Below, one piece after another: positions 32,297 to 47,138 of a stretch of DNA of 64,000 bases; position 1 is the stretch's first letter; each line of letters opens with the position of its first letter. A program made the translations under genes and the position numbers. Below the pieces are notes generated by a model that saw only the letters and a list, made by a program, of their open reading frames with translations, had not been told where the DNA came from and made no database searches. Location: assembly GCF_009711165.2 (NCBI RefSeq), contig NZ_WMID02000010.1:103836-167835 (forward strand), read 5' to 3'. Source of the DNA: Flavobacterium sp. MC2016-06 (GTDB lineage Bacteria > Bacteroidota > Bacteroidia > Flavobacteriales > Flavobacteriaceae).

Positions 32297-33736
32297 TCAG
32301 TTTTTAATTGATTCTACTTTTTTGTCATTGATATAAGTATTAATAAAATTGATATTTTTTACGTTTTTTAATAAATAGAGCGAATCTACTTTTTCAATTT
32401 TCACATTTTTAAGTGTGATATTTTCTACTGGAGATGTCGCGTATCCTTCGGCCCAAACACTATATTTTCCGCCGTATTTTACTGTTACGTTTTCAATATT
32501 TATATTTCTAATAACAGGTATAAAATTTCCTGTCTGAGATCCGTAAACATTGTAAAACATGTTCAATTTCAAAACACATTCTTTTACGGTTCCTACCTCT
32601 AGATTTCTAACATATACATCTTCGATAACGCCGCCTCTTTTAGAATTTGTCTTGATTCTAATGGCACGATCCAAATTAGGACTGTCCATTACACAATTTT
32701 CTACAAAAACATTATTTACTCCTGCAGATATTTCACTTCCAATTACAACGCCACCGTGGCCGTCGATCATTTTGCAATTCTGAACAATGATATTTTTACT
32801 AGGTATTGCCACTCTTCTACCATCAGCGTCACGACCTGCTTTAATCGCAATACAGTCATCACCAGTATTAAAAGTGCAGTTTTTAATTACTATATTTTGA
32901 GAATATTCAGGATCGCAGCCATCATTATTAGGTCCGTGGCTGTTTACCGTTACGCCATCAATAATCATGTTATTTGTTTTGAATGGATGAAGAATCCAAA
33001 ACGGAGAATTGATAACCGTAACGTCTTTTATTAAAACCGTATTACACTCAAAAAACTCAATAAAATTAGGGCGTAAATAACGACCTTCACCAAAAACTCT
33101 TTCAGAAACCAGAGTTCCTTTTTCAGCCATTTCTACTAATACTTCACGATTGTTTGGGTCATTTTGGGACGGAATTCCTTTTTTCCAGCCGTAATCTTTT
33201 CCGCCAGACCAAATCCACCAATTCGTTTTATCAGCTTGGCCGTTAAGAGTTCCTTTTCCTGTTATAGCAACATTAGTTTTGTTTTTAGCATAAATAAGAG
33301 GAGAATAATTCATTACTTCTGTTCCTTCAAACGAAGTATGAACGATTGGATAATCTTGAGGGTTTAAACTAAACAGAATTTCGGCATTGTCTTCTAAATG
33401 CAGATTTACATTACTTTCTAAGTGAATTGGTCCAGTTAGATATTTACCGTTAGGAACTATAACTTTTCCGCCTCCATTTGCAGCACATTCTTTTATAGCT
33501 TTTTCAAATGCATTTGTGTTTAATGTTTTACCATCTGCAACAGCTCCAAAATCATTTATGTTATAGGTTTTATTTACGAAGTGAGTTTCTGGAATACTTT
33601 TAATGACTAATTCCATTCTTTTCCAAGGATCTAACTCAGAAACAGCAGAAACTTGTTTACTGCATGACACAATCATGAAAGCAATTGTAGTTAAAAAAAT
33701 AACTGACTTGAATGCTATATCCTTATTTGTAATCAT
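32297..33736 (-). CDS. GH28 family polygalacturonase-like lipoprotein
   Basis: 479 residues. A lipoprotein signal ends MIVSC with Cys25. The canonical GH28 set is complete: NNDGCDPEYS, TGDDCIAIKAGRD, DGHGGVVIGSE and RIKTN. It is the first gene of the pectin operon, so it is expressed together with SusCD and is probably anchored at the cell surface or in the periplasm. It resembles exo-acting bacterial GH28 (galacturonidase or rhamnogalacturonan-type) in the pattern after the second Asp pair. Endo or exo action cannot be fixed here. Confidence 0.92.
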   Translation of the reverse strand: MITNKDIAFKSVIFLTTIAFMIVSCSKQVSAVSELDPWKRMELVIKSIPETHFVNKTYNINDFGAVADGKTLNTNAFEKAIKECAANGGGKVIVPNGKYLTGPIHLESNVNLHLEDNAEILFSLNPQDYPIVHTSFEGTEVMNYSPLIYAKNKTNVAITGKGTLNGQADKTNWWIWSGGKDYGWKKGIPSQNDPNNREVLVEMAEKGTLVSERVFGEGRYLRPNFIEFFECNTVLIKDVTVINSPFWILHPFKTNNMIIDGVTVNSHGPNNDGCDPEYSQNIVIKNCTFNTGDDCIAIKAGRDADGRRVAIPSKNIIVQNCKMIDGHGGVVIGSEISAGVNNVFVENCVMDSPNLDRAIRIKTNSKRGGVIEDVYVRNLEVGTVKECVLKLNMFYNVYGSQTGNFIPVIRNINIENVTVKYGGKYSVWAEGYATSPVENITLKNVKIEKVDSLYLLKNVKNINFINTYINDKKVESIKN

Positions 33737-33780: not shown

Positions 33781-33802
33781 TGTAATCGATTACACGAAAG
33801 TA
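33781..33802 (-). promoter_or_regulatory. LacI-type operator and promoter of the pectin operon
   Basis: Perfect 14-bp palindrome TGTAATCGATTACA (33781-33794), directly followed by CGAAAGTA, which on the minus strand is TACTTTCG, one base off the -7 consensus TAnnTTTG. The same operator plus -7 arrangement precedes kduI and the first MFS gene. A second -7 match (TAAATTTG, minus, 33830-33823) lies further upstream. The GH28 start is 45 bp downstream. Confidence 0.8.
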
Positions 33803-33944
33803 GATAATTTGTTCTAATGCACCAAATTTATTTAGAAATAAATTGTATATTTAATTTTTATTATGAATTATAATTACAGTTAATGTAAAAAAACACATAA
33901 TTTATTATCATTGTATAACTGAAAACGTTTTAGTTATTCATTAT

Positions 33945-33993
33945 GGTAATCGATAACATTTTATGTTACATATATAAAAAAAATGTATTTTTG
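33945..33993 (+). promoter_or_regulatory. Probable autoregulatory operator and promoter of the LacI-type gene
   Basis: GGTAATCGATAACA at 33945-33958 matches 12 of 14 positions of the TGTAATCGATTACA operator. A -7 box TATTTTTG lies at 33986-33993, 30 bp before the ATG. A separate palindrome AAAACGTTTT sits at 33922-33931 and is another possible LacI-family site. Confidence 0.6.
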
Positions 33994-34022
33994 TCTAGAA
34001 TTAATCCAACAACTCTTTATTA

Positions 34023-35051
34023 ATGAGCGAAAAAATAACCATTTACGATATTGCTGAGAAATTAAATATCACCGCTGCTACTGTTTCTAGAGCGTTAAAC
34101 AATAACCCAAAGATTAAAGAAAGTACGCGCGAGCTGGTAATTAAAACCGCTGCTGCAATGAACTATAAGCAGAACAAACTTGCTTTAGCTCTAAAAAGCG
34201 GCCGAAGTAATAATATTGGAGTTATTGTTCCTCGTATCGACAGCAATTTTTTTGCTTCGGTTATTAGAGGTATCGAAGAAGAACTTCATCCGCATGGTTA
34301 TCAAGTCATTATCTGCCAGACGCACGAAAGTTCAAAAAGAGAAAATGAAAATCTTCATACTTTAATCGATGCTCAGGTTGATGGAATTATGATGTCGGTA
34401 ACCGATGTTACAGACGAAAACAATGGTGCTTTTCAATATGTTTTAGAGAAAAATGTACCTCTTATCTTTTTTGATAGAAGTAAACATATTGACGGTGTAA
34501 GCTCCGTTACGATCAACGACTTTAAAGGTGGTTACATTACCACAAAACATTTAATAGACGAAGGCTGCAGATGTATTGCTCATTTTTCTGGAGACCTTTC
34601 ACTTGAAATTTTCAAAAGCAGGTTTTTAGGCTATAAACAAGCGTTATTAGACAACGGAATGACTTTTAAAGAAGAATATGTTATTCGTACTAAAAGTAGT
34701 GTTGATTCAGGAAAAGAAGCTTTAAATCAAATGTTACAATTAGAAACACCACCCGATGCCATATTTTCGGCGAGTGATTTCGCTGCATTAGGTGCTATTC
34801 AAGAGCTAAGAGAGAGAAATATCAACATTCCAAAAGATTTTTGTGTAGCAGGTTTCAGTAACGAACCTTTCACCAAATTCATGGAATTGTCAATTACTTC
34901 TGTTGATCAATCACCACTTGAAATGGGTAAAATGTCTGCACGTGTTTTCTTAGAGCAAGTAGATAAAACAGATACCATTAAAATAGAAAAAAAGGTAGTT
35001 CTTGCTCCAGAATTGCATATTCGTAAATCATCGTCACGAACAAACTCTTAG
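34023..35051 (+). CDS. LacI-family transcriptional regulator (pectin/uronate regulon candidate)
   Basis: 342 residues. The N-terminal helix-turn-helix and hinge helix (ITIYDIAEKLNITAATVSRALNNNPKI, NKLALALKSGRSNNIGVIVP) are followed by a periplasmic-binding-type ligand domain ending in a typical SVDQSPLEMGKMSA. It lies divergently between the pectin operon and the uronate genes. The TGTAATCGATTrCA palindromes near it and before the uronate operons are the size and form of LacI-family operators, so it is the prime candidate to bind them. The inducer, perhaps a uronate or KDG-type intermediate, is inferred. Confidence 0.92.
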   Translation: MSEKITIYDIAEKLNITAATVSRALNNNPKIKESTRELVIKTAAAMNYKQNKLALALKSGRSNNIGVIVPRIDSNFFASVIRGIEEELHPHGYQVIICQTHESSKRENENLHTLIDAQVDGIMMSVTDVTDENNGAFQYVLEKNVPLIFFDRSKHIDGVSSVTINDFKGGYITTKHLIDEGCRCIAHFSGDLSLEIFKSRFLGYKQALLDNGMTFKEEYVIRTKSSVDSGKEALNQMLQLETPPDAIFSASDFAALGAIQELRERNINIPKDFCVAGFSNEPFTKFMELSITSVDQSPLEMGKMSARVFLEQVDKTDTIKIEKKVVLAPELHIRKSSSRTNS

Positions 35052-35061
35052 TGTTTTTTTT

Positions 35062-35313
35062 ACCATATAAGTTATGTAAGTTCATTTAATTAAGCTGTTT
35101 TCAAAGCTTTTTTAAGGGCATATAAAACTTTGTCAAAGTTTGAAACTTTGATAAAGTTGACTGGTATAATCTGGAATGTAATTTTGACGATATAAGTTCT
35201 CTAAAAAATAATAAACCCTATAAACCTAGAAGCTAACTTCTTTGATTTATAGGGTTTTTAATTTAAAATTAATTAAGCTCAAACTTAAAATGAACTTATA
35301 TAACTTATATGGT
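35062..35313. repeat. Nested inverted-repeat element between lacI-type gene and uxaA
   Basis: Outer arms 35062-35086 and 35289-35313 are inverted copies with one mismatch in 25 (ACCATATAAGTTAT...). Inside lies a palindrome at 35126-35158 (AACTTTGTCAAAGTTT centre) and a terminator hairpin at 35213-35257. The inner palindrome family recurs at 49853-49883. Confidence 0.85.
35213..35261. terminator. Shared terminator of the LacI-type gene and uxaA
   Basis: AAACCCTATAAA (35213-35224) pairs with TTTATAGGGTTT (35246-35257), followed by T on the plus strand and preceded by A-rich sequence. It sits between two convergent genes. Confidence 0.75.
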
Positions 35314-35325
35314 TTAAATAAATCC

Positions 35326-36948
35326 TTAAAGAGAAACTCCTCTTTTCCAAGGAATAAAATCGTTTTGATTTAAAACTGCTGCTTTGGTTTTAATAGTACC
35401 ACTTGCAACATCAATAATAAACTCAAGCATTTCGTCAGCCATTTCATCAATTGATTTTTCACCAGTGATAATTCCACCCGTATCAATATCAATAATATCA
35501 GACATTTTGTTTGCTAATTGTGTGTTTGATGAAATCTTCACAACTGGTGCAATCGGGTTTCCTGTCGGAGTTCCTAAACCTGTTGTAAACAATACCATAT
35601 TTGCTCCAGAACCTACCATTGCTGTTGTACATTCTACATCATTTCCTGGTGTACATAACAATGTAAAGCCTGGTTCGTTAATATATTCTCCATAATCGAA
35701 AACACCTGTAATTGGCGATGTTCCACCTTTTTTAGCAGCACCAGCCGATTTCATTGCATCTGTAATCAAACCGTCTTTGATGTTACCTGGAGAAGGATTC
35801 ATATCAAATCCTGAACCTGCATCAACAACTGTTTTTTCGTACCATTGCATTAATTCTAAGAAACGTTTTCCATCCTTATCATCTATACAACGATTTACTA
35901 ATTCCTGTTCTACTCCACATAATTCAGGAAATTCAGAAAGAATTGTAGTTCCTCCCAAAGCAACTAAATGATCAGATAACACTCCCAATGTTGGATTTGC
36001 AGAAATTCCAGAGAATCCATCAGATCCACCGCACTCTAAACCAATTCTTAGTTTAGATAATGGAGCTGGTTCTCTCTTAATTTCGTTTGCTTTTTTAATC
36101 GCTTCAAAAGTATCTTTTACAACACTGCTAAGCATTGTTTCGATAGTTCCAATTTGCTGTTGATCGTAAATTAAAACAGGCTTTTTACTGTTTGGATTAA
36201 TAGCATCTAAAGCATCTTTGAAGATTTGAATCTGCAAGTTCTGACATCCTAAACTTAAAACAGTAGCTCCAGCAACGTTTGGATTGTTTACATAACCAGC
36301 CAAAAGCTTAGCCAAACTGTGAGAATCCTGACGAATTCCACCACAACCACCTTGATGCGTAATAAATTTAACTTCAATATTATTGAATAAATTGGCATCA
36401 TTAGAAGCTGCTTCATTTCCAGTTCCACCCGTTTCTGTTTTCACTAAAGAACGAAGTAATAACTGATAATCGTTTTCTTTAGGCTTCATTAATTCCTTTT
36501 CGAAGATATCTTTTAAGATCTCGATGTTTCTGTTTTCACAAAAAACTAATGGAAAAAATAACCATACATTCTCTGTTCCAACTTGTCCATCTTCTCTATG
36601 ATAGCCCTGCCACGTTCTATCTTTCCATTTGTCTACATTTGGTGCAGTCCAGCCAATAGTTTCAGTTTTACCTGTAACTTTATCACTCTCGTGTTTTACG
36701 TTTAAAGTAGAAAGCAATCCTCCTTTTTCGATTCTTGCGCTTGCTTTACCTACCAAAACACCATACATAATAATTCTGTCTCCTACATTAAAAGGAACCA
36801 TTGCAATCTTATGTTTCATTTTTACATCAGACTCAATAGCAATTGATTGTCCATCAAAATCAATTACTTCGCCTGCTGTAAGATTCACCAAAGCCACCGC
36901 TACATTATCCGTAGGATTAACTTTTATTAATTTTTTTTGCGTTGCCAT
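35326..36948 (-). CDS. uxaA: Altronate dehydratase
   Basis: 540 residues. An N-terminal SAF domain (about 1-100) is joined to the large UxaA catalytic domain (THQGGCGGIRQDSHSL, GCQNLQIQIFKDAL, GLECGGSDGFSGISANP, CTPGNDVECTTAMVGSGANM). It dehydrates D-altronate to 2-keto-3-deoxygluconate in the cytoplasm and uses iron or manganese. It is somewhat longer than the enterobacterial enzyme (about 495). It lies 29 bp after uxaB and is the last gene of the uronate run. Confidence 0.95.
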   Translation of the reverse strand: MATQKKLIKVNPTDNVAVALVNLTAGEVIDFDGQSIAIESDVKMKHKIAMVPFNVGDRIIMYGVLVGKASARIEKGGLLSTLNVKHESDKVTGKTETIGWTAPNVDKWKDRTWQGYHREDGQVGTENVWLFFPLVFCENRNIEILKDIFEKELMKPKENDYQLLLRSLVKTETGGTGNEAASNDANLFNNIEVKFITHQGGCGGIRQDSHSLAKLLAGYVNNPNVAGATVLSLGCQNLQIQIFKDALDAINPNSKKPVLIYDQQQIGTIETMLSSVVKDTFEAIKKANEIKREPAPLSKLRIGLECGGSDGFSGISANPTLGVLSDHLVALGGTTILSEFPELCGVEQELVNRCIDDKDGKRFLELMQWYEKTVVDAGSGFDMNPSPGNIKDGLITDAMKSAGAAKKGGTSPITGVFDYGEYINEPGFTLLCTPGNDVECTTAMVGSGANMVLFTTGLGTPTGNPIAPVVKISSNTQLANKMSDIIDIDTGGIITGEKSIDEMADEMLEFIIDVASGTIKTKAAVLNQNDFIPWKRGVSL

Positions 36949-36977
36949 AATTAACCTTTGTTCTTTTTGTTTTTTTT

Positions 36978-38423
36978 TTATTTTATTCTTTCTTGAAAAC
37001 TAGCAAAACCAGCTTCAATTCCCTTCGAATCTATTTCTTCCAAAGCAATTGTAATTGCTTTAGTTAATCCAGGGATATCTGTTAAATCTTCATCCCAGAA
37101 ACTTTTGTTTTGCAATGTAAGTCTTGCTACTTTTTCATAATCATCTGATTTCCATAAACTATCAAAAAATGATACGATATCTTCACCATCTTTAACGGGT
37201 AAACTTTGACCATCCCACGTTCCTTTGTAGAAACGAATTAAACTCGCTAATGAAAAAGTTAAATTAACAGGCAATTTTTTGTTAGCATTATAATATCCTA
37301 ATAAACTAGGTAAAACTCTTACTTTGAATTTCGATACAGAATTTAATGCAATATCAGCAAGTGCATGTTTGATAAATGGATTTTTAAATCGGTCCATTAC
37401 TTCCTCAGAATAGGCCGTAATTTCATTTTTGTCCATATCAAGAGTTTCACTAATTTCACTAATAACGCTATCTACAAATTTTCCGGTAAAACCTCCGTTA
37501 ACAGTTTCCATTACTAATTTATTACCATGCAAAAGTGAAAAAGGAACCATTGCCGTGTGCGCACCGTTTAAAATACGAACTTTAATCATTTTAAAAGGAC
37601 GTATATCATCAACGATTTTTACATTCAAATCTGTTTTATGAAAAGGCAATTTTGCTTTTAAATCATCTCCACCTTCAATAGCCCAAAGGAAAAAAGGTTC
37701 AGCAGCAACAATTAAATTGTCCTCATAATCTAATTTATTATTGTATTCTTCAATTTCAGCTCTAGGATATCCAGGAACAATTCTGTCAACCAAAGTACTA
37801 TGATATGTACAAGCATCTGATACCCAAGTCTTAAATGCATCTTCTAATTTCCATAAATCAACATATTGTAAAATATATTTTTTAAGCGTCTCAGAGTTAT
37901 AATCGATTAATTCACAAGGAATTATTGTAACTCCTTTAGAAGCATCTCCTTTAAAATGTTTAAATCTTTCATATAATAAAACCGTCAATTTTGCAGGAAA
38001 TGACACTGGCGGCTGCATGTCTGGAGTATCACTTTCAATAAATTCAATTCCAGCTTCTGTAGTATTAGAAACAATAAACTGAAGTTCTTCCTCTTTGGCT
38101 AAAGCCAAATAATTTGCAAATTCAGTATAAGGGTTTATAGTTTTTACAATATTAGTAATTAACTCAATATATTGTATCTTTTCACCTTTTTTAATTCCGT
38201 TCATAAACAAGGTATAAAGACCGTCCTGATCATTAATCAGGTGCACCATACCATCTTTCAAAGGTTGAACTATTGCAATACCAGCATTAAAATCAACTTC
38301 TTTATTTAGTTTATCAAAAGCATAATCAACAAAGGCTCTTAAAAAATTACCTTCTCCAAACTGAACTACCTTAATTGGCTGTAACTTTTCTAATCCTGTA
38401 TTTATTCTATTTAATTTTTTCAT
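36978..38423 (-). CDS. uxaB: Tagaturonate reductase (altronate oxidoreductase)
   Basis: 481 residues of the mannitol dehydrogenase family. The Rossmann part has VQFGEGNFLRAFVDYAFD. The conserved KVRILNGAHTAMVPFSLLHG motif carries the catalytic Lys and His-Asn residues. It reduces D-tagaturonate to D-altronate with NADH. Its neighbours uxaA and uxaC give the complete galacturonate isomerase pathway. A 216-bp gap with a long hairpin separates it from kdgA upstream. Confidence 0.93.
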   Translation of the reverse strand: MKKLNRINTGLEKLQPIKVVQFGEGNFLRAFVDYAFDKLNKEVDFNAGIAIVQPLKDGMVHLINDQDGLYTLFMNGIKKGEKIQYIELITNIVKTINPYTEFANYLALAKEEELQFIVSNTTEAGIEFIESDTPDMQPPVSFPAKLTVLLYERFKHFKGDASKGVTIIPCELIDYNSETLKKYILQYVDLWKLEDAFKTWVSDACTYHSTLVDRIVPGYPRAEIEEYNNKLDYEDNLIVAAEPFFLWAIEGGDDLKAKLPFHKTDLNVKIVDDIRPFKMIKVRILNGAHTAMVPFSLLHGNKLVMETVNGGFTGKFVDSVISEISETLDMDKNEITAYSEEVMDRFKNPFIKHALADIALNSVSKFKVRVLPSLLGYYNANKKLPVNLTFSLASLIRFYKGTWDGQSLPVKDGEDIVSFFDSLWKSDDYEKVARLTLQNKSFWDEDLTDIPGLTKAITIALEEIDSKGIEAGFASFQERIK

Positions 38424-38490
38424 TTTAAATTTTCTTTAATGCGTTATAAATAATCATTTATAAATCTTATTTCTTCATTTCTGTCTTTTA

Positions 38491-38586
38491 AATTGTAAAT
38501 GAAACATTACACTCGATTAAACAAAATAAAACCTGCTGTGAGGAGTGACAAGTTTTATTTTCCAAGCGTAATGTTCAATTACAATC
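38491..38586. repeat. 96-bp nested hairpin upstream of uxaB
   Basis: Outer arms 38491-38513 and 38566-38586 are inverted copies with a single-base gap and a few mismatches. Inner arms AAAATAAAAC (38523-38532) and GTTTTATTTT (38552-38561) pair perfectly around a 19-nt GC-richer loop. It lies between kdgA and uxaB on the transcribed strand and could act as attenuator, processing site or small mobile palindromic element. Confidence 0.75.
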
Positions 38587-38639
38587 TCTAAAATCTAAAA
38601 AAAAACGTATTTAAAATAAGGTTTTGGCATGATTACTCC

Positions 38640-39311
38640 TTATTTATTTTTAATATTTTTGATAATGTCAAGAACTTGACTGACTTTTGCAGTCAAACCG
38701 TCAAAATCTTTATTGTCTAATATATCTTTTGAAATCAATTGTGAACCTAAACCAACGCAAGTTGCACCAGCATTCAACCAAGAACTTAAACTTTCAACTG
38801 TTGGATAAACACCTCCAGTTGGCATAATATTAGTCCACGGACACGGTCCTTTTATTGCTTTAATAAATTCTGGCCCGTAAATATCTGCTGGAAATAATTT
38901 TACAATTTCGCAACCCAATTCTTCTGCTCTTGCAATTTCCGTAAGCGTTCCACAGCCCGGAGACCAAAGCACTTTACGACGATTACAAGCAATTGCAATA
39001 TCTTCTCTAAAAACTGGAGTAACAATAAAATTAGCTCCTAAACTCATATATTGCGAAGCTGCTGCCGCATCTGTAATAGAACCAACTCCCAAGATCATTC
39101 CTGGTAATTCGGCCAAAGCGTATTTATTTAAAGCGCCAAAAACTTCATGAGCAAAGTCTCCTCTGCTGGTAAATTCCATTAATCTAGAACCACCATCATA
39201 ACATGCTTTTAAAACTTTCTTGCTTATTTCTATATCTGAATGAAAAAACAACGGAACCATTCCGTTATCCTTCATTGTCTGCGCTACTTCAATTCTTGAA
39301 TATCTTGCCAT
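38640..39311 (-). CDS. kdgA: 2-keto-3-deoxy-6-phosphogluconate aldolase
   Basis: 223 residues, a class I TIM-barrel aldolase of the KHG/KDPG family. The Schiff-base Lys is in EIVKLFPADIYGPEFIKAIKGP, the Glu in MEFTSRGD, and a phosphate-binding GGVYPT stretch follows. It cleaves KDPG into pyruvate and glyceraldehyde-3-phosphate, the last step of both uronate routes encoded here. It is 10 bp after kdgK. Confidence 0.93.
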   Translation of the reverse strand: MARYSRIEVAQTMKDNGMVPLFFHSDIEISKKVLKACYDGGSRLMEFTSRGDFAHEVFGALNKYALAELPGMILGVGSITDAAAASQYMSLGANFIVTPVFREDIAIACNRRKVLWSPGCGTLTEIARAEELGCEIVKLFPADIYGPEFIKAIKGPCPWTNIMPTGGVYPTVESLSSWLNAGATCVGLGSQLISKDILDNKDFDGLTAKVSQVLDIIKNIKNK

Positions 39312-39321
39312 TTTTATTTTA

Positions 39322-40344
39322 TTATCTTGATACTAATGCAGAACCATCACCATCAATCATATTTTCAACTTCTTTAAGTGTAACCAAGTTGTAATCTCCT
39401 GCAATGGTATGTTTTAAACAACAAGCTGCTACCGCAAAATCTAATGCTCTTTGATTATTATTTTGATATTCTAACAAACCATAAATTAAACCGCCCATAA
39501 AGGCATCACCGCTTCCTACACGGTCTACAACTGGAGTAACTTCCTTAACGGCTGCACTATAAATTGCTTTTCCGTTAAATAAAACACCTCCAATTCTTTG
39601 ATGAGAAGCACTTACAGAATAACGAAGTGTTGTTGCTGCAATCTCTAAATTCGGAACCAATTCAAATAATTTTGAATATACAGCTGGAAGTGATTTCTCG
39701 TCTTGATAATTCGGATTTACTTTCGGAATTCCAAGCATAAAATAGGCTGTATCAATATCACCTAAAATAACATTGCTGTACTTTAGCATTTCTGGCATTA
39801 CTTCGCTTGGCGTTTTACCATACTGCCAAAGTTTTGATCTATAATTTAGATCGCATGAAATTTTAATTCCTAGTTTATGCGCCACTTTTATTGCTTCTAA
39901 ACAAGCATCAGCAGCACTTTGAGAAATAGCCGGCGTAATCCCGCTCCAATGGAACCATTCTGCTCCTTCTAGAACTTCTTCCCAGTTTACCATGCCTTTT
40001 TCTATAGTCGACATAGCACTGTGAGCACGATCGTAAACTACATTGCTTCCACGAGTTCCTGCTCCTGTTTCTAGAAAATAGATTCCTAAACGCTCTCCTC
40101 CATAAACTATGTTTTTAGATTCTACGTTCATTTTTCGCATTTCTTTTAATGCTGTCAATCCAATTTCATTTTCAGGTAATCTGGTAACAAATTCAGCATT
40201 TATACCATAATTAGCCAAAGAAACGCATACATTAAATTCGCCGCCACCATAAGAAGCACCAAACTCTTTTGCCTGCGAAAAACGTAAATGTCTTTCTGTT
40301 GAAAGACGAAGCATGATTTCTCCAAATGCAACTACTCTACTCAT
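39322..40344 (-). CDS. kdgK: 2-keto-3-deoxygluconate kinase (PfkB family)
   Basis: 340 residues. The PfkB N-terminal motif is GEIMLRLSTERHLRF with GGGEFNVCVSLANYG, and the catalytic Asp lies in DRVGSGDAFMGGLIYGLL. It phosphorylates KDG to KDPG. It is coupled to kdgA. A 230-bp gap with a CCCGATAGCTATCGGG palindrome precedes it, so it may have its own promoter or lie downstream of a processing site. Confidence 0.92.
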   Translation of the reverse strand: MSRVVAFGEIMLRLSTERHLRFSQAKEFGASYGGGEFNVCVSLANYGINAEFVTRLPENEIGLTALKEMRKMNVESKNIVYGGERLGIYFLETGAGTRGSNVVYDRAHSAMSTIEKGMVNWEEVLEGAEWFHWSGITPAISQSAADACLEAIKVAHKLGIKISCDLNYRSKLWQYGKTPSEVMPEMLKYSNVILGDIDTAYFMLGIPKVNPNYQDEKSLPAVYSKLFELVPNLEIAATTLRYSVSASHQRIGGVLFNGKAIYSAAVKEVTPVVDRVGSGDAFMGGLIYGLLEYQNNNQRALDFAVAACCLKHTIAGDYNLVTLKEVENMIDGDGSALVSR

Positions 40345-40447
40345 ATTGTTTAATTATTTTACCAGTAAAAGGTTTTGTTTTTACCATTAAGAGATTAAGA
40401 AAAATTAAGTTTTGCCTAATGTCTTAACTGTTATTTTTTTTTCAACT

Positions 40448-40463
40448 CCCGATAGCTATCGGG
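40448..40463. repeat. CCCGATAGCTATCGGG palindrome, copy 1
   Basis: Perfect 16-bp palindrome in the uxaC-kdgK gap. An identical copy lies at 52347-52362 and a half copy (GAGCTATCGGGAG) near 48275-48287. Next to it, 40490-40519 holds a partial copy of the CTGC-rich repeat seen at 48181 and 51136. Confidence 0.85.
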
Positions 40464-40574
40464 ATAAAAGATTAAAATGATTTTTAAATTAAATCTGCTC
40501 AATCTGCAAAATCTGCGTGCTTAACATTCTTCCTTAATGACTCTTAATATCTTAATGGTTCAAAAAGAAAAAAA

Positions 40575-41981
40575 TTAAAATTTGAAATATTCTTTTGCAT
40601 TGTTATACGAAATATCCTGAACCATTTTACCAATCCATTCCATATCGTTTGGAAGTTCACCGCGTTTGATTTCGTCTCCTAAAAGATTACATAAAATACG
40701 TCTGAAATATTCGTGTCTTGGGAACGATAAGAAACTTCTAGAATCTGTAAGCATTCCGATAAAACAACTAATTAATCCCATGTTTGAAAGGGCGTTTAAT
40801 TGTTTTGTCATTCCATCTTTTTGATCTAAAAACCACCATCCAGATCCAAATTGTACTTTTCCTCTAACGCTTCCGTCGTTGAAATTTCCAATCATTGTTG
40901 CCATAACTTCGTTATCAGCTGGATTTAGATTATAAATGATTGTTTTAGTCAATTTATCTTTGCTATCTAATGCATTTAAAAAGTTAGATAGTTTTTGTGC
41001 TTGCGGATAATCTCCAATAGAATCCCAACCTGTATCTGGTCCTAAAATTCTATGCATACGAGCATTATTATTACGTAAAGCACCTAAGTGAAATTGCTGT
41101 ACCCATCCGAATTCATGATATGTTTCAGACAAGTATAATAATACGGCACTTTGGAATTTTAATGCTTCTTCTGGAGATAAAACGCCATTTTCTCTTTTCT
41201 TTTTGAAAATTGAACTTACTTCGCTTTCTGTAAAGTTTTCAAAGTAAATCTGATCTAAACCGTGATCACTTAATTTACATCCGTTTTTAGAGAAAAATTC
41301 AATTCTATTTCTCAATGCACTTTGTAAATCAGCATAAGTATTAATTGCAACTCCGGACACATCCCCTAATGTGTCCAGATATGCATTATAACCATCATTA
41401 GAAATTAAGATGGCTTTATCAGGTCTGAAAGCTGTACTCATTTTAGTTCCAATTGGATTCTGATTTAGTTTCTGGTGAAACTCTAAAGTATCAATCGGAT
41501 CTTCTGTTGTACAAACTAATTCAGCGTTTACTTTTTTAAGCAAATTCTGTGTGCTGTAAGCTTGAGAATTTATTTTTTCTGTAGTTTCGATATAAATTTT
41601 CTCTGCTGTTTTTTCATTCAACAAATCATAAATATCAAAATAACGTGCTAATTCTAAATGTGTCCAGTGGTACAAAGGATTACGCATTGTGTACGGAACC
41701 GTTTTTGCCCAATTTATGAACTTATCTTTATCAGAACCATTTCCAGTTACAAATTGTTCGTTGATTCCTAATGTACGCATTGCGCGCCATTTGTAATGAT
41801 CTCCGTTAATCCAAACCTGTGTAGTGTTATCAAAGATTTTATCTTCGGCAATAAATTGTGGATTTAGGTGATTATGGTAATCAATAATCGGCTGATTTTT
41901 AGAGTAATTGTGGTATAACTCTTCAGCAAATTTATTTTCTAATAAAAAATTATCGTTTATGAATGTCTGATTAGCGCTCAT
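40575..41981 (-). CDS. uxaC: Uronate isomerase
   Basis: 468 residues, a TIM-barrel of the amidohydrolase superfamily. The metal-ligand pair is in IIDYHNHLNPQFIAEDK. Other family motifs are WINGDHYKWRAMRTLG, YFDIYDLLN and FIGMLTDSRSFLSFPRHEYFRR. It isomerises galacturonate to tagaturonate (and glucuronate to fructuronate). It is 21 bp after kduD on the same strand. Length matches the family (about 470). Confidence 0.95.
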   Translation of the reverse strand: MSANQTFINDNFLLENKFAEELYHNYSKNQPIIDYHNHLNPQFIAEDKIFDNTTQVWINGDHYKWRAMRTLGINEQFVTGNGSDKDKFINWAKTVPYTMRNPLYHWTHLELARYFDIYDLLNEKTAEKIYIETTEKINSQAYSTQNLLKKVNAELVCTTEDPIDTLEFHQKLNQNPIGTKMSTAFRPDKAILISNDGYNAYLDTLGDVSGVAINTYADLQSALRNRIEFFSKNGCKLSDHGLDQIYFENFTESEVSSIFKKKRENGVLSPEEALKFQSAVLLYLSETYHEFGWVQQFHLGALRNNNARMHRILGPDTGWDSIGDYPQAQKLSNFLNALDSKDKLTKTIIYNLNPADNEVMATMIGNFNDGSVRGKVQFGSGWWFLDQKDGMTKQLNALSNMGLISCFIGMLTDSRSFLSFPRHEYFRRILCNLLGDEIKRGELPNDMEWIGKMVQDISYNNAKEYFKF

Positions 41982-42002
41982 GATTTTATATAATTGAAAT
42001 AA

Positions 42003-42791
42003 TTATTCGTTTGATGGTTTTCCGATTGTAGCCAAAATTCCTCCGTCAACATATAAAATATGTCCGTTAACAAAATCGCTGGCTTTCGAAGATAAAAATA
42101 TTGCTGCTCCGGCTAAATCACTTGGATCTCCCCATTTTGCAGCTGGTGTTCTACTGATAATAAAATCATTAAACGGATGTCCGTCTACTCTAATAGGCTT
42201 CGTTTGTTCTGTAGCAAAATAACCCGGTCCAATTCCGTTGATCTGAACGTTGTGTTTTGCCCACTCTGTTGCCATATTTTTAGTCAGCATTTTCAATCCG
42301 CCTTTTGCAGCAGCATAAGCACTTACTGTGCTTCTGCCCAATTCACTCATCATCGAGCAAATGTTGATTATTTTTCCTTGCTGTCTTTCAATCATTCCTT
42401 TAGCAACATGCTTAGAAACAATAAACGGACTTACTAAATCAATATCAATTACTTCTCTAAAATCTTCAACTTCCATTTCTAGAAGTGGAATTCTTTTAAT
42501 AATTCCAGCGTTGTTGATTAGAATATCAATTGGTCCAACTTCGCTTTCAATTTTTTGAATCGCAGTCATTACTTCCTGCTCATTGGTTACATTAAATTTA
42601 TAACCTACAGCATTGATTCCTTCACTTTTAAGTGCTGCCACAGCTGCATCAATCTTTTCTTGAGAAGAATTACCGTTTACAACAATTGTTGCTCCAGCTT
42701 GTCCTAAACCTTTTGCCATTGCCATTCCCAGTCCGTGTGTACTTCCTGTGATTAGGGCAATTTTTCCTTGTATATCAAATAAGTTTGTCAT
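42003..42791 (-). CDS. kduD: 2-deoxy-D-gluconate 3-dehydrogenase / DKII reductase
   Basis: 262-residue SDR with TGSTHGLG cofactor motif, NNAG, catalytic YAAAK and C-terminal YVDGG. Its location 4 bp from kduI identifies it as KduD. It reduces the diketo sugar acid made by KduI to 2-keto-3-deoxygluconate with NADH. Without the context it could only be called an SDR. Confidence 0.92.
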   Translation of the reverse strand: MTNLFDIQGKIALITGSTHGLGMAMAKGLGQAGATIVVNGNSSQEKIDAAVAALKSEGINAVGYKFNVTNEQEVMTAIQKIESEVGPIDILINNAGIIKRIPLLEMEVEDFREVIDIDLVSPFIVSKHVAKGMIERQQGKIINICSMMSELGRSTVSAYAAAKGGLKMLTKNMATEWAKHNVQINGIGPGYFATEQTKPIRVDGHPFNDFIISRTPAAKWGDPSDLAGAAIFLSSKASDFVNGHILYVDGGILATIGKPSNE

Positions 42792-42795
42792 ATTC

Positions 42796-43635
42796 TTATC
42801 TTAAATCTGTGATTTTACAAACATCCATATCACCGTAATCTAAATTCTCACCAGCCATTCCCCAAATAAAAGTATAATTTGAAGTTCCTGAACCAGAGTG
42901 AATCGACCATGGCGGTGAAATTACAGCTTGATGATTGTTCATCCAGATATGTCTTGTTTCCTGTGGTTGTCCCATAAAGTGACAAACGGCTTGATTTTCT
43001 GGAATGTCTAAATAAAAATAAACTTCCATTCTACGATCGTGAACGTGCGCTGGCATCGTATTCCAAACACTTCCAGGTCTTAATTCTGTCATTCCCATTT
43101 GCAATTGGCAGGTAGTAACAACACTTCCAATAATCATTTGGTTTACGGTACGGTGATTTGCCGTTTCCATAGTTCCCAATTGTAATTTATTTGCTTCTGC
43201 TAAACTTACTTTTACCGTTGGATAACTGGTGTGAGCTGGTGCAGAGTTGATATAAAATTTAGCTGGAGTTTTGCTGTCGTCACTTTTAAAAGTAACTTCT
43301 TTATTCCCGCTTCCGATATACAAAGCATCTTTAAATCCTAGTTCAAACGTTTTTCCTTCAACAACAACAGAACCGCTTCCTCCAACATTGATGATTCCAA
43401 TTTCTCTTCGCTCTAAAAAATAAGGCGCTTTAAGAGGATCAATTGTTTCTAATTGCAAATCGCCTTTTACAGGAACTGCAGAACCAGCAATATATCTGTC
43501 GTAATGAGAGTAAACCAATACAATCTCATCTTCTTGCATTAAGTCTTCAATTAAGAATTCTTCTCTTAGTTGCTGCGTATCATATTTTTTTACAGCTTCT
43601 GGATTTGACGCGTATCTTGAACTATATTTTGTCAT
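42796..43635 (-). CDS. kduI: 5-keto-4-deoxyuronate isomerase
   Basis: 279 residues, a two-cupin protein with the Zn ligands in MPAHVHDRRMEVYFYLD and SPPWSIHSGSG, and ETRHIWMNNHQAV. It isomerises 5-keto-4-deoxyuronate, which forms spontaneously from the unsaturated galacturonate released by the GH105 enzymes. It is first in the kduI-kduD-uxaC run and has its own operator-promoter at 43649-43670. Confidence 0.95.
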   Translation of the reverse strand: MTKYSSRYASNPEAVKKYDTQQLREEFLIEDLMQEDEIVLVYSHYDRYIAGSAVPVKGDLQLETIDPLKAPYFLERREIGIINVGGSGSVVVEGKTFELGFKDALYIGSGNKEVTFKSDDSKTPAKFYINSAPAHTSYPTVKVSLAEANKLQLGTMETANHRTVNQMIIGSVVTTCQLQMGMTELRPGSVWNTMPAHVHDRRMEVYFYLDIPENQAVCHFMGQPQETRHIWMNNHQAVISPPWSIHSGSGTSNYTFIWGMAGENLDYGDMDVCKITDLR

Positions 43636-43648
43636 AATTTTAATTTAA

Positions 43649-43670
43649 TGTAATCGATTGCACAAAATTA
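43649..43670 (-). promoter_or_regulatory. LacI-type operator and promoter of kduI
   Basis: TGTAATCGATTGCA (43649-43662, 13 of 14 palindromic bases) immediately followed by CAAAATTA, i.e. TAATTTTG on the minus strand, a perfect -7 box. The operator covers the expected start site about 20 bp before the kduI ATG, the position of a repressor. Confidence 0.85.
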
Positions 43671-43729
43671 TATTTTTATATTTAAAAACCATAATTGAAA
43701 CTAAAAATTATTTCATTTTTTGTTAAAAA

Positions 43730-45058
43730 TTACAATTCTACCTTCTTCATTCTAGGAACCAAAAGATGCATAATTAACCAAGCCGTTAAGTATGAGGCCC
43801 CGCAAATACAGAACATAATGAAATATCCTGTTTCAATTTTTCCGATTTTAGTGTAATAAACAAACATATTTTTTTGTACCACTAAAGTCAATAAAATTCC
43901 TCCTAATGCTCCAAACATTCCTCCAATTCCTGTTACAGAAGCTGTAGCCTTTTTTGGAAACATATCTGATACTGTTGTAAAGATATTTGCCGACCAAGCT
44001 TGGTGCGCAGAAACTGCTAAACCTATTACCAAAATTGCCAGCCACATATTAATTGAACCTAAATATTGTGAAAACAATACCGGTAAAACAGCAAATGCAT
44101 ATAAGAGCATACTTGTTTTACGTGCTTTGTAAGCCGGCCAGTTATTGTTTATTAATTTTAATGGAAGCCAGCCTCCGCCGATGCTTCCAATACTTCCAAT
44201 CATGTATACTAAAGCGCAAGGCCAAATAATTCCTGTTGCTGATAATTTGTATTGTTTCATCAAGAAATCAGGCAGCCAGAATAAATAAAACCACCAAACT
44301 GGATCTGTCAATAATTTTCCGATTGCAAATGCCCAAGTCTGACGAAATGAAAGTAATTTTAACCAAGAAACTTTTTCTGTATCATTAGCTACAGCTTCAG
44401 CTTCAGCAACTTCAACTTGATCCGCTGTAATATATTCTAATTCTGCCTGCGAAAGGCGTTTTTGTTTTTGAGGTATCTCATAATAGATAAACCATAAAAT
44501 CAGCCAAACAAAACCAACAATTCCAGTTAGAATAAAAGCCCATTGCCAGCCGTAATTTTCTGCTATAAATGGAACAGTAAGCGGCACAATGATAGCGCCA
44601 ATATTACTGCCAGAATTGAATATTCCTGTTGCTAATGCTCGTTCTTTCTGCGGAAACCATTCTGCCGTAGCTTTTATCGCTGCAGGAAAATTTCCCGCCT
44701 CTGTAATTCCTAAAAATACACGAGCAATTAAAAAACCTCCTGTACCCGTTGCAAATGCATGCCCAATAGCTGCCAAACTCCATAAACCTGTTGCAATTGC
44801 ATACCCTAATTTTGTACCTAATTTATCTATAAATCCTCCTGCCATAAACATACCTAATGCGTATGCTATTTTAAAAGCCAGCTCAATATTAGAATAATCT
44901 ATCACCTCTTGTTCTGGTGTCCAGTGAAAAGCTTCTGCCAAAAAAGGCCGAAGGTAACTTATTACATTTCTGTCTAGATAATTGACAGTTGTAGCAAAAA
45001 ATACTAAACTGCAAATCGTCCATCGGTATTTTCCAATTACTGCATTGGTTTGGTTCAT
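43730..45058 (-). CDS. MFS hexuronate transporter (ExuT-like), copy 2
   Basis: 442 residues with twelve predicted membrane segments and the anion/cation symporter (ACS) pattern: NYLDRNVISY in the first helix and LGITEAGNFPAAIKATAEWFPQKERALATGIFNSGSNIGA. These match hexuronate transporters of the ExuT type. It imports galacturonate or glucuronate. It is 48 bp after its longer paralogue, and the context strongly supports a uronate substrate. The two copies may prefer saturated and unsaturated uronates. Confidence 0.9.
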   Translation of the reverse strand: MNQTNAVIGKYRWTICSLVFFATTVNYLDRNVISYLRPFLAEAFHWTPEQEVIDYSNIELAFKIAYALGMFMAGGFIDKLGTKLGYAIATGLWSLAAIGHAFATGTGGFLIARVFLGITEAGNFPAAIKATAEWFPQKERALATGIFNSGSNIGAIIVPLTVPFIAENYGWQWAFILTGIVGFVWLILWFIYYEIPQKQKRLSQAELEYITADQVEVAEAEAVANDTEKVSWLKLLSFRQTWAFAIGKLLTDPVWWFYLFWLPDFLMKQYKLSATGIIWPCALVYMIGSIGSIGGGWLPLKLINNNWPAYKARKTSMLLYAFAVLPVLFSQYLGSINMWLAILVIGLAVSAHQAWSANIFTTVSDMFPKKATASVTGIGGMFGALGGILLTLVVQKNMFVYYTKIGKIETGYFIMFCICGASYLTAWLIMHLLVPRMKKVEL

Positions 45059-45106
45059 AATTAAGTTTGGTTTAGGTTGATTGGTTAGTTAGTATTCAAT
45101 ATGCTT

Positions 45107-46702
45107 TTACAAATCTGTAATTGGTCTGTATTTTGGAACTAATGTTTTCATCACTAACCAGCCTATTAAATAGCAGACTGCACAGATTGAAAAGATAATC
45201 ATATACCCCGAATTTATACCGTTTACGACGTGATCTCCTGTTGCTGTTAATGATTTTAAAAAATCTTCTAAACTAGCAATTCCTTTTTCGTTTAAAAAGA
45301 CTTTTGTAGTTTCTGAATTTTGAAATTGCGGGTATTTTTCTAATAAAGGCTGACCATTTACAGAAGTCCAATTTCTTTGCGTAAAATCAAACAATACTCC
45401 CGAACCTTTATTTATTATTGTAGAACCAATTCCTCCAGCTAAACCACCAATACCTGTAATGGTAGCAATTGCTTTTTTAGGAAACATATCTCCAACAGTT
45501 GTAAAAATATTTGCCGACCAAGATTGATGTGCTGCTCCTGCAATACCAATAATAATTATTGGAATCCAATAACTAATATATCCTAAAGGCTGTGCAATCA
45601 AAGCTAATAATGGAAAAAATGCAAAAATTAACATTGCTCTCATTCTTCCTTCATACGGATTCATTCCTTTTTTTTCTACAAAATAAGTAGGAAGCCATCC
45701 TCCAATAATCGAAAGTAACGTAATCATATACAAAACAAACAATGGTAAAGCTGCTTGAGTAGAATCCATTCCGTAAACAGAACTTAAATAAGCCGGAGTC
45801 CAGAATAAGAAAAACCACCAAACACCATCTGTCATAAATTTACCAAACGCAAAAGCCCATGTCTGTTTGTATTTAAAACACTCTACAAAAGAGACTTTAG
45901 TTCTTGTATCCAAAACATAACCTTCAATTTTACTATCTGCTATATCGTCTTGCTGTATATATTCTAATTCGGCTGCATTTACTTTAGAATGTCTTTCTGG
46001 TTTATCGTACATAAACATCCAAAATCCCATCCAAACAAAACCTAAAGCTCCAATTATGATAAAAGACATTTCCCATCCAAAAGATTTTGCAATAAACGGA
46101 ATTGAAATTGGTGCCGCCAATGCTCCTACTGTCGCACCAGCATTAAAAATACTTGTAGCAAATGCTCTGTCTTTTTTAGGAAAATATTCGGCCGTAGTTT
46201 TTATAGCTGCAGGAAAGTTACCTGCTTCACCAATTGCCAATACAAAACGAGCAAAAATAAACAAGGAAACGCTCACATTGATTACCATTCCTGTATCGTT
46301 TATGGCATGAATCACATTTTTAGCTCCTTCAAAACCTACAAACCAATTTCCTGTTATAATTCCAGATGTTGCAATACCGCAGAAGGCATGAAGACAAGCT
46401 CCTATAGACCAAATTCCAATGGCCCAAAGAAATCCTTTTTTAGTATCTAACCAGTCTACAAAACGACCTGCAAATAATAACGAAACGGCATAAAAAATAG
46501 AGAATAAAGCTGTAATATCACCGTAATCACTATTAGTCCAATGAAATTCCGGAGCAATAAAATCCTTCCAAGTTAAGGAAAGTACTTGTCTGTCTAAGTA
46601 GTTAATTGTAGTTGCAAAAAATAGCAACGCACATATACTCCATCGATACTTTCCGGCTGTTTTTGAGGCTTGGCTTGTAGTAATTGCTTCGGTTTGATTC
46701 AT
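45107..46702 (-). CDS. MFS hexuronate transporter (ExuT-like), long form with two loop insertions
   Basis: 531 residues. The same ACS-family core as the neighbour (NYLDRQVLSLTWKDF, AIGEAGNFPAAIKTTAEYFPKKDRAFATSIFNAGATVGA), but about 90 residues longer. One insertion of some 35 residues follows ACLHAFCG (around residues 105-140). A second of about 55 residues lies near residues 430-490 (FDFTQRNWTSVNGQPLL...ATGDHVVNGINSG). Both fall in predicted loops. It is first in its transcript and controlled by the operator at 46809. Substrate is inferred as a uronate. Confidence 0.88.
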   Translation of the reverse strand: MNQTEAITTSQASKTAGKYRWSICALLFFATTINYLDRQVLSLTWKDFIAPEFHWTNSDYGDITALFSIFYAVSLLFAGRFVDWLDTKKGFLWAIGIWSIGACLHAFCGIATSGIITGNWFVGFEGAKNVIHAINDTGMVINVSVSLFIFARFVLAIGEAGNFPAAIKTTAEYFPKKDRAFATSIFNAGATVGALAAPISIPFIAKSFGWEMSFIIIGALGFVWMGFWMFMYDKPERHSKVNAAELEYIQQDDIADSKIEGYVLDTRTKVSFVECFKYKQTWAFAFGKFMTDGVWWFFLFWTPAYLSSVYGMDSTQAALPLFVLYMITLLSIIGGWLPTYFVEKKGMNPYEGRMRAMLIFAFFPLLALIAQPLGYISYWIPIIIIGIAGAAHQSWSANIFTTVGDMFPKKAIATITGIGGLAGGIGSTIINKGSGVLFDFTQRNWTSVNGQPLLEKYPQFQNSETTKVFLNEKGIASLEDFLKSLTATGDHVVNGINSGYMIIFSICAVCYLIGWLVMKTLVPKYRPITDL

Positions 46703-47138
46703 GGTAACAGTTAGTTATAAATTTAAAAAATTTTGGTAATTTAATTTTGCAATCGCATTCACTTTAAAAACATTAAAATCAATAAACTAATACCAACAAA
46801 TGCAATAATGTAATCGATTGCACAAATATAGTTTTAAATCTTTATATTCCAAATAAATTGAATAAAAAATTATTTTAAGTATTTAAATAAACGTATAGCT
46901 CAAAAAATATAACTCAAAATTACACATTAAATAATATATTTGTTAAAATCAGGCATGTAAAAATCATCCGTTTTAGGGATCAAAATAATACCAGAAAATG
47001 CATATTCTAATTCTATTTTACTTACTTTTCGAATTCAAAAATTGATGTATTTTTAAACTTTTATAACAAATTATTACAGCAAAAAATATCTTTTTTTACC
47101 TTTATATATACTATTAACCTTCATAAATTCTTTTACAA
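46703..47138. other. Divergent gap between MFS and esterase genes
   Basis: 436 bp holding the operator-promoter of the MFS gene (46809-46830). The rest is AT-rich with no gene I can support. Confidence 0.5.
46809..46830 (-). promoter_or_regulatory. LacI-type operator and promoter of the uronate transporters
   Basis: TGTAATCGATTGCA (46809-46822), identical to the kduI operator, is directly followed by CAAATATA, which on the minus strand is TATATTTG, a perfect -7 box. The spacing to the box is the same as at kduI. The transporter start is 107 bp downstream. Confidence 0.85.

What the first reader, a model, noticed from the sequence alone, without database searches (positions are those of the whole stretch)
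33781..46830. A LacI-type operator fused to a -7 box marks one pectin/uronate regulon
TGTAATCGATTrCA occurs before the SusCD/GH28 operon (33781), kduI (43649) and the uronate transporters (46809). At each it is immediately followed by a minus-strand -7 box (perfect at two, one mismatch at the third). A 12/14 match precedes the LacI-family gene itself (33945). Identical geometry at three transcription units implies repression by covering the start site. The divergent LacI protein at 34023 is the natural binder. The site is seen; the binder is inferred.
Basis: partly seen in the sequence, partly recalled or inferred. Interest (0 to 1): 0.72.

Follow-up and report, generated by a model that had tools for sequence, protein, structure and literature searches.

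The report
Pectin-gene operator fused to promoters
A short palindromic DNA switch sits directly against the promoters of pectin-digesting genes in Flavobacterium and related bacteria, very probably where a LacI-type sugar-sensing repressor binds to keep these genes off until pectin is present.

Summary
The three exact TGTAATCGATTRCA sites are real, each abuts a minus-strand -7 box, and a conserved weaker site precedes lacI. The regulon reaches beyond the window: the 6.17 Mb genome has 7 exact sites, and 7 of 7 carry the fused -7 box pointing at pectin, uronate or SusCD genes. In 80 lacI loci of close relatives 156 of 156 exact sites are fused. In 299 genomes of the family (236 genera) the fused motif and the LacI ortholog occur together in 41; one genome has LacI alone, one a motif hit inside a reading frame. 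Among GH28-positive genomes the motif is in 37 of 37 with the LacI and 0 of 28 without. This LacI is therefore very probably the binder. With start-site mapping from F. psychrophilum the operator would cover about -4 to +10, which fits repression by blocking the start; binding, repression and inducer are untested. It is a new member of a known kind (LacI-type uronate regulon) with unusually rigid promoter-operator geometry and a Crp-like gene among its targets.

The parts
33781..33794 (.). Operator TGTAATCGATTACA of the GH28/SusCD operon
   Evidence: exact palindrome; exact and fused at 79 GH28-side sites in 80 loci of relatives, the 80th locus being cut short
33795..33802 (-). Fused -7 box TACTTTCG (one base off TAnnTTTG, deviation conserved)
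   Evidence: ends TTCG in 79 of 79
33823..33826 (-). Probable -33 box TTTG, 20 nt upstream of the -7 box
   Evidence: read by eye in the sequence; region conserved
32297..33736 (-). GH28 polygalacturonase family, first gene of the operon
   Evidence: Pfam PF00295
29133..32264 (-). SusC-like TonB-dependent receptor
   Evidence: Pfam
27447..29120 (-). SusD-like lipoprotein
   Evidence: Pfam
33945..33958 (.). Weaker lacI-proximal site GGTAATCGATAACA, not fused
   Evidence: best site lies -76 to -85 from the lacI start in 80 of 80 loci; GGTAATCGATAACA in 69 of the 79 whose letters were tallied
33986..33993 (+). Probable -7 box of lacI, TATTTTTG
   Evidence: conserved in the alignment of lacI upstream regions
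34023..35051 (+). LacI-family regulator, proposed binder
   Evidence: Pfam LacI HTH + Peripla_BP; co-occurrence
43649..43662 (.). Operator TGTAATCGATTGCA of the kduI operon
   Evidence: 77 of 77 orthologous exact sites fused
43663..43670 (-). Fused -7 box TAATTTTG
42796..43635 (-). kduI
   Evidence: Pfam PF04962
42003..42791 (-). kduD-like short-chain dehydrogenase
   Evidence: Pfam adh_short; name from context
40575..41981 (-). uxaC uronate isomerase
   Evidence: Pfam PF02614
39322..40344 (-). PfkB kinase, probable kdgK
   Evidence: Pfam PF00294; name from context
38640..39311 (-). KDPG/KHG aldolase
   Evidence: Pfam PF01081
36978..38423 (-). Mannitol-dehydrogenase family, probable uxaB
   Evidence: Pfam; name from context
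35326..36948 (-). Altronate/galactarate dehydratase family, probable uxaA
   Evidence: Pfam; that this and the genes above form one transcript with kduI is inferred
46809..46822 (.). Operator TGTAATCGATTGCA of the transporter unit
46823..46830 (-). Fused -7 box TATATTTG
46850..46853 (-). Probable -33 box TTTG, 19 nt upstream of the -7 box
   Evidence: read by eye in the sequence
45107..46702 (-). MFS transporter, probable uronate permease
   Evidence: Pfam MFS_1; best NCBIfam hit D-galactonate transporter, below cut-off
43730..45058 (-). Second MFS transporter
   Evidence: Pfam MFS_1; below-cut-off hit to D-galactonate transporter

Best explanation
A single LacI-family repressor (34023-35051) controls pectin (homogalacturonan) use. 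As a dimer it binds the 14-bp palindrome TGYAATCGATTRCA, which is fused to the 3' end of the -7 box so that it covers about -4 to +10 of each transcript and blocks RNA polymerase. When pectin breakdown yields a uronate-pathway intermediate in the cell, the ligand binds the periplasmic-binding-protein-like domain, the repressor leaves, and secreted lyases, GH28/SusCD import, uronate permeases and KduI/Uxa catabolic genes come on together. A weaker, non-fused site upstream of lacI probably tunes its own expression. Shown here: the sites, the fixed geometry and its conservation, the gene set, and LacI-motif co-occurrence. Inferred: binding, repression, the start site and the inducer (KDG, DKI or galacturonate; not distinguished).
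For: 7 of 7 exact genome sites fused and pointing at pectin, uronate or SusCD genes. 156 of 156 exact sites fused in 80 lacI loci of relatives; mean column identity of the 22-mer 0.986 (GH28) and 0.992 (kduI) against 0.58 and 0.74 in the 30 nt downstream. Palindromes chosen without regard to the -7 box in 28 lacI loci of other genera: 22 of 31 fused (up to 1 mismatch in the box), other offsets mean 1.08, largest 8. Co-occurrence: genus 46 of 47 LacI genomes and 0 of 103 others; family 41 of 42 and 1 of 257. The genus exception G061 carries CGTAATCGATTACG, changed at both ends, before GH28 and before a kduI-uxa array. GH28-positive genomes of the family: 37/37 with LacI, 0/28 without. Of 93 downstream genes: GH28 17, PL1 12, CBM77 9, MFS 12, KduI 8, SusC plug 9. 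Recognition helix AATVSRALN in 111 of 112 orthologs (GATVSRALN in the other) and in 0 of 6 paralogs of this genome. Nearest solved relatives are CcpA chains. F. johnsoniae raises a SusC and a Sus gene mapped to one operon with a polygalacturonase 60-100-fold on pectin (PMC8056085, section 17 read).
Against: No binding, start-site or expression data for this organism. G163 has the LacI ortholog (58%) but no GH28 and no site; G467, of another family, has a 60% relative and no site in the 20 kb taken. In the unbiased set 9 of 31 sites are not fused and 6 of 28 loci have no site. In the 80 close loci 12 one-mismatch palindromes are all unfused, 8 of them the lacI-proximal site. The exact palindrome without the -7 box also occurs once each in 9 of 103 genomes lacking the LacI; the backward control occurs in 13 of 150 genomes, so this looks like chance. 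A GH28 on contig C31 has no site up to one mismatch on its contig. In the F. johnsoniae study a pectate lyase, a TonB gene and a transcriptional regulator rose in the proteome but not by qPCR; in Gramella flava pectin raised uxa genes but not the SusCD pair of its pectin PUL (PMC5306329, passages). Genomes are related, so Fisher values overstate independence. Near own paralog C1 a 12/14 palindrome is itself within one mismatch of fusion.
Confidence: 0.83

Rival explanations
1. Another regulator in the same genomes, such as the Crp-like protein whose gene carries the site or another LacI paralog, binds the palindrome, and this LacI merely travels with it.
For: The Crp-like gene (L011:5006-5575) carries the site in this and in four other genomes picked for it; the genome has 7 LacI-family genes.
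Against: A palindrome with central CG is the usual LacI-family form (recalled). GH28 genomes without this LacI have no fused motif, 0 of 28. All 6 paralogs have different recognition helices. One paralog group (5 of 5 loci) has a different shared palindrome. The Crp-like gene was not searched across the family, so this rival is not excluded.
Confidence: 0.07
2. LacI binds these sites but acts as an activator, or as both, rather than as a simple start-site blocker.
For: The lacI-proximal site lies upstream of its promoter (about -53 to -40 by the same count), where binding need not block. The GH28 promoter has a conserved off-consensus -7 box, as in promoters that need help.
Against: At the fused promoters the site would overlap the start region, a classic blocking position; most characterised LacI-family members repress (recalled).
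Confidence: 0.08
3. The 22-mer is a promoter class read by an alternative sigma factor, not an operator.
For: The -7 box and the palindrome go together at all 7 exact sites of the genome.
Against: The palindrome is symmetric, also in the G061 variant changed at both ends; the -7 part alone is the ordinary sigma-A box (PMC9723704, section 15 part 1 read); the motif follows a LacI gene, and not all sites are fused.
Confidence: 0.02

Closest known systems
Bacteroides KdgR/UxaR/UxuR LacI-family uronate regulons (PMC3878776, PMC4052901; passages seen)
   Same: LacI-family regulators of glucuronate, galacturonate and KDG use in Bacteroidota, reconstructed by comparative genomics
   Different: There rhamnogalacturonan/pectin SusCD loci are assigned to hybrid two-component systems, and the monosaccharide regulons are mostly cytoplasmic enzymes and inner-membrane transporters (a few periplasmic or extracellular proteins in KdgR); here one LacI covers lyases, SusCD, permeases and catabolism. 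Their motifs are in supplements I could not read; orthology not tested.
CcpA-cre (PDB 1rzr, 3oqm; nearest solved relatives)
   Same: LacI-family dimer; palindrome with central CG of the TGnAAnCGnTTnCA type (consensus recalled); similar recognition helix (MATVSRVVN against AATVSRALN)
   Different: CcpA is a global regulator with an HPr cofactor (recalled); the NCBIfam ccpA cut-off is not met (188.3 of 442.35 bits)
Lac repressor at lacO1 (recalled)
   Same: operator overlapping the start of transcription, repression by blocking
   Different: O1 lies further downstream and works with auxiliary operators; here the site abuts a Bacteroidota -7 box exactly, at non-homologous promoters

Membership tests
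LacI family of transcription factors | N-terminal LacI HTH plus periplasmic-binding-protein-like ligand domain | tested here: met
   PF00356 45.1 bits (cut-off 27); PF00532 and PF13377 above cut-off
LacI family of transcription factors | palindromic operator with central CG | tested here: met
   TGYAATCGATTRCA; two-sided variant in G061; that this protein binds it is inferred
LacI-type uronate/pectin regulon | site shared by several uronate or pectin transcription units and conserved across genomes | tested here: met
LacI-type uronate/pectin regulon | regulator binds the site and responds to a uronate intermediate | not testable with these tools
   needs gel shift, DAP-seq or expression data
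Bacteroides KdgR/UxaR/UxuR groups | orthology to those proteins and same motif | not tested
   named sequences and supplementary motifs not compared
CcpA | NCBIfam ccpA score above curated cut-off | tested here: not met
   188.3 of 442.35 bits

The most novel reading that the evidence does not exclude
The 22-bp TAnnTTTG-TGYAATCGATTRCA is a frame-locked composite module rather than an operator placed near a promoter: its position against the -7 box is itself under selection across dozens of genera and has arisen repeatedly at unrelated promoters, because this LacI must contact or trap polymerase (or the operator's first bases double as the discriminator), not only block it. The regulon also commands a Crp-like second regulator, giving a two-tier pectin cascade.
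Probability: 0.22. Interest if true: 0.65.

Novelty: new member of a known kind. Interest (0 to 1): 0.5.

Why it matters
Few regulons are defined in environmental Bacteroidota (recalled). Here one 22-bp pattern reads out a pectin regulon across a family, including lyases and a SusCD operon far from the main locus, and names its probable regulator. That makes the pectin response of flavobacteria, which F. johnsoniae couples to colony spreading (PMC8056085), directly testable, and suggests a design rule for repressible promoters in this group: abut the operator to TAnnTTTG.

Tried and rejected
Window-level enrichment at 3 mismatches: not significant (25 against 16.5), so not used. One-mismatch genome hits: C6 (at the start of an L25p ribosomal gene) and the C1 and two C12 hits (inside reading frames) were taken as chance. 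C8:8335, first taken as unfused towards PL1, is fused towards the divergent Crp-like gene, with one mismatch to the looser pattern.

Looping between the GH28 site and the lacI-proximal site: spacings in six loci run from 148 to 201 bp without an obvious helical phase (by eye), so not proposed.

Is fusion a general rule for LacI paralogs? In 20 regions: one paralog group (5 loci) has CGAAAACGTTTTCG or a 12/14 form in 5 of 5, at four of them as two copies 21 bp apart, and none of the exact copies fused; the other group (12 loci) shares no palindrome core in more than 2 loci; of 3 own paralogs, C19 has pairs 23 bp apart. Against a clean contrast, three palindromes (L354:4931, L355:7249, L356:4866) have a -7 box within one mismatch at offset zero. 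The question stays open.

G256 (motif, no LacI) is a hit inside a reading frame. G163 remains unexplained.

Literature: searched for LacI-type pectin regulons, pectin responses or operators on the TAnnTTTG box in Bacteroidota; none of the listings showed this regulon, and (operator, repressor, TAnnTTTG) found no paper. Only the held open-access library was searched.
Full report
CHECK. At three mismatches the window shows no clear excess (25 seen, 16.5 expected), so the case rests on exact sites: 7 in the 6.17 Mb genome, none for the pattern read backwards (G000 row).

ORGANISM. I call the genus Flavobacterium because the closest named lacI loci are (76 of 80 titled so, 87-94% identity over the best segment); the family name Flavobacteriaceae follows from that.

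THE GENOME-WIDE SET. The four exact sites outside the window precede a GH28 gene followed by a Pec_lyase (PL10-type) gene (C5), a PL1 with CBM77 (C9), a PL1 with a T9SS tail (C35) and a SusC/SusD operon of unproven substrate (C36). At all four TAnnTTTG is perfect, fused, and on the strand of the gene; at C9 the tool's TTG start overlaps the site, but the first ATG lies 68 bp further on. With the window that is 7 of 7 fused and 7 of 7 correctly oriented, at promoters of different genes. An eighth, imperfect site (TATTTTTA-CGTAATCGATTACA, C8) lies between a PL1 and a divergent Crp-like gene and is fused towards the latter; in four other genomes, picked because a fused site led to this gene, the same PL1 is divergent too. 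A GH28 on contig C31 has no site on its contig, so the regulon does not take in every GH28.

CONSERVATION. Of 104 relatives found, the best 80 lacI loci were kept. They hold 156 exact sites, all fused: 79 on the GH28 side, always ending TTCG, and 77 at kduI, always ending TTTG. The four loci with one of the two missing are cut short in the record. Twelve further one-mismatch palindromes are unfused, 8 of them the lacI-proximal site. The 22-mer has mean column identity 0.986 (GH28) and 0.992 (kduI); the 30 nt downstream 0.58 and 0.74; the 17-nt spacer upstream 0.73 and 0.84; the stretch 33-72 nt upstream of the -7 box 0.88 and 0.59. The 0.88 lies in the divergent lacI-GH28 interval, so conservation there is not confined to the element. 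In 28 lacI loci of other genera, scanning for the palindrome alone (up to one mismatch), 22 loci hold 31 sites; 22 of the 31 are fused with at most one mismatch in the box, other offsets average 1.08 and reach 8 at most. At least four of the 9 unfused sites are lacI-proximal second sites.

BINDER. In 150 genomes of the genus the fused motif (up to one mismatch) is in 46, the LacI ortholog in 47, both in 46; the backward control gave 2 hits in all 150. The palindrome alone, exact, is in 46 of 47 LacI genomes and in 9 of 103 others with one site each; its backward control is in 13 of 150 genomes, so the 9 look like chance. The exception, G061, has CGTAATCGATTACG before GH28 and before an array of kduI, kduD, uxaC, kdgK, aldolase, permease, uxaB and uxaA homologs (59-80% identity to the window's proteins). 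At G061's GH28 the box is off consensus and overlaps the palindrome by two bases. In 299 genomes of the family (236 genera), with a slightly looser pattern: LacI 42, motif 42, both 41; the backward control gave 6 hits. The obvious confounder, that both merely follow pectin loci, was tested with GH28: 65 genomes have it (62 over the family's cut-off); of 37 with the LacI 37 have the motif, of 28 without it none. Of 5 LacI genomes without GH28, 4 have the motif. In the genus the same test is weak: of 48 GH28 genomes only 2 lack the LacI. In 217 genomes of the class the motif is in 4, all of the window's genus; the ortholog is in those and in G467, another family, 60% identity, without a site in the 20 kb taken. 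The recognition helix reads AATVSRALN in 111 of 112 orthologs and GATVSRALN in one; 0 of 6 paralogs of this genome share it.

REGULON CONTENT. Of 98 sites picked from 21 genomes, 93 had a usable downstream frame; Pfam tallies are Pect-lyase_RHGA_epim 19, GH28 17, PL1 12, CBM77 9, MFS 12, KduI 8, SusC plug 9, BD-FAE esterase 4, cNMP-binding 4, Pec_lyase 2 (families overlap within proteins; 25 of 54 families shown). NCBIfam points the same way.

MECHANISM. TSS mapping in F. psychrophilum places TAnnTTTG at -12 to -5 (PMC9723704; passages and section 15 part 1 read). The operator would then cover -4 to +10, so a bound LacI dimer would block the start. TTTG -33 boxes are visible at GH28 and the permease (spacers 20 and 19) but not clearly at kduI (by eye). 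Pectin induction fits published data: in F. johnsoniae two Sus genes mapped to one operon with a polygalacturonase rise 60-100-fold, and their 18-gene cluster rises in the proteome (PMC8056085, section 17 read); I did not map those accessions to this locus. The same study found a pectate lyase, a TonB gene and a transcriptional regulator raised in the proteome but not by qPCR. In Gramella flava pectin raised uxa genes but not the SusCD pair of the pectin PUL (PMC5306329, passages). At lacI the site lies about 27 bp upstream of a conserved -7 box, so control there would not be by start-site blocking.

COMPARISON AND NOVELTY. LacI-type uronate regulators are known in Bacteroides (PMC3878776, PMC4052901; passages), where rhamnogalacturonan SusCD loci are assigned to hybrid two-component systems. 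The family-wide 22-mer, its rigid geometry, its reach to secreted lyases and SusCD, and the Crp-like target were not seen in the listings or passages. Whether other LacI paralogs also fuse their operators is open. I file it as a new member of a known kind.

Noticed in passing
L011:4936-5575 (genome C8); also L333, L334, L335, L336: A Crp-like cyclic-nucleotide-binding gene, divergent from a PL1 pectate lyase, carries the fused operator (CG in place of TG at its start) here and in four genomes picked for it: a possible second tier of pectin control.
   Followed up: partly
33795-33802 and 79 orthologous promoters: The -7 box of the GH28/SusCD operon ends TTCG instead of TTTG in 79 of 79 exact sites of relatives, while kduI ends TTTG in 77 of 77; reason unknown.
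   Followed up: partly
L355:4797-4833, L355:7226-7262; L350, L352, L353, L354: Near other LacI paralogs lie different palindromes (TGTGCTCGAACACA type; CGAAAACGTTTTCG type) in pairs 21-23 bp apart.
   Followed up: partly
L356:4866-4879 (genome C1, just upstream of another LacI-family gene): A 12/14 palindrome with the same AATCGATT core has a -7 box within one mismatch directly beside it, so fusion may not be unique to the pectin regulator.
   Followed up: no
G060:C22:166559-168862 and G066:C104:80823-83131: Two genomes carry tandem copies of this LacI gene (81-86% identical to the query).
   Followed up: no
L162:5260-5778: In G061 a short 172-aa LacI-like frame sits inside the kduI-uxa array, before the aldolase gene.
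   Followed up: no
L292 (G163): LacI ortholog at 58% identity in a genome without GH28 and without any site: its targets are unknown.
   Followed up: partly
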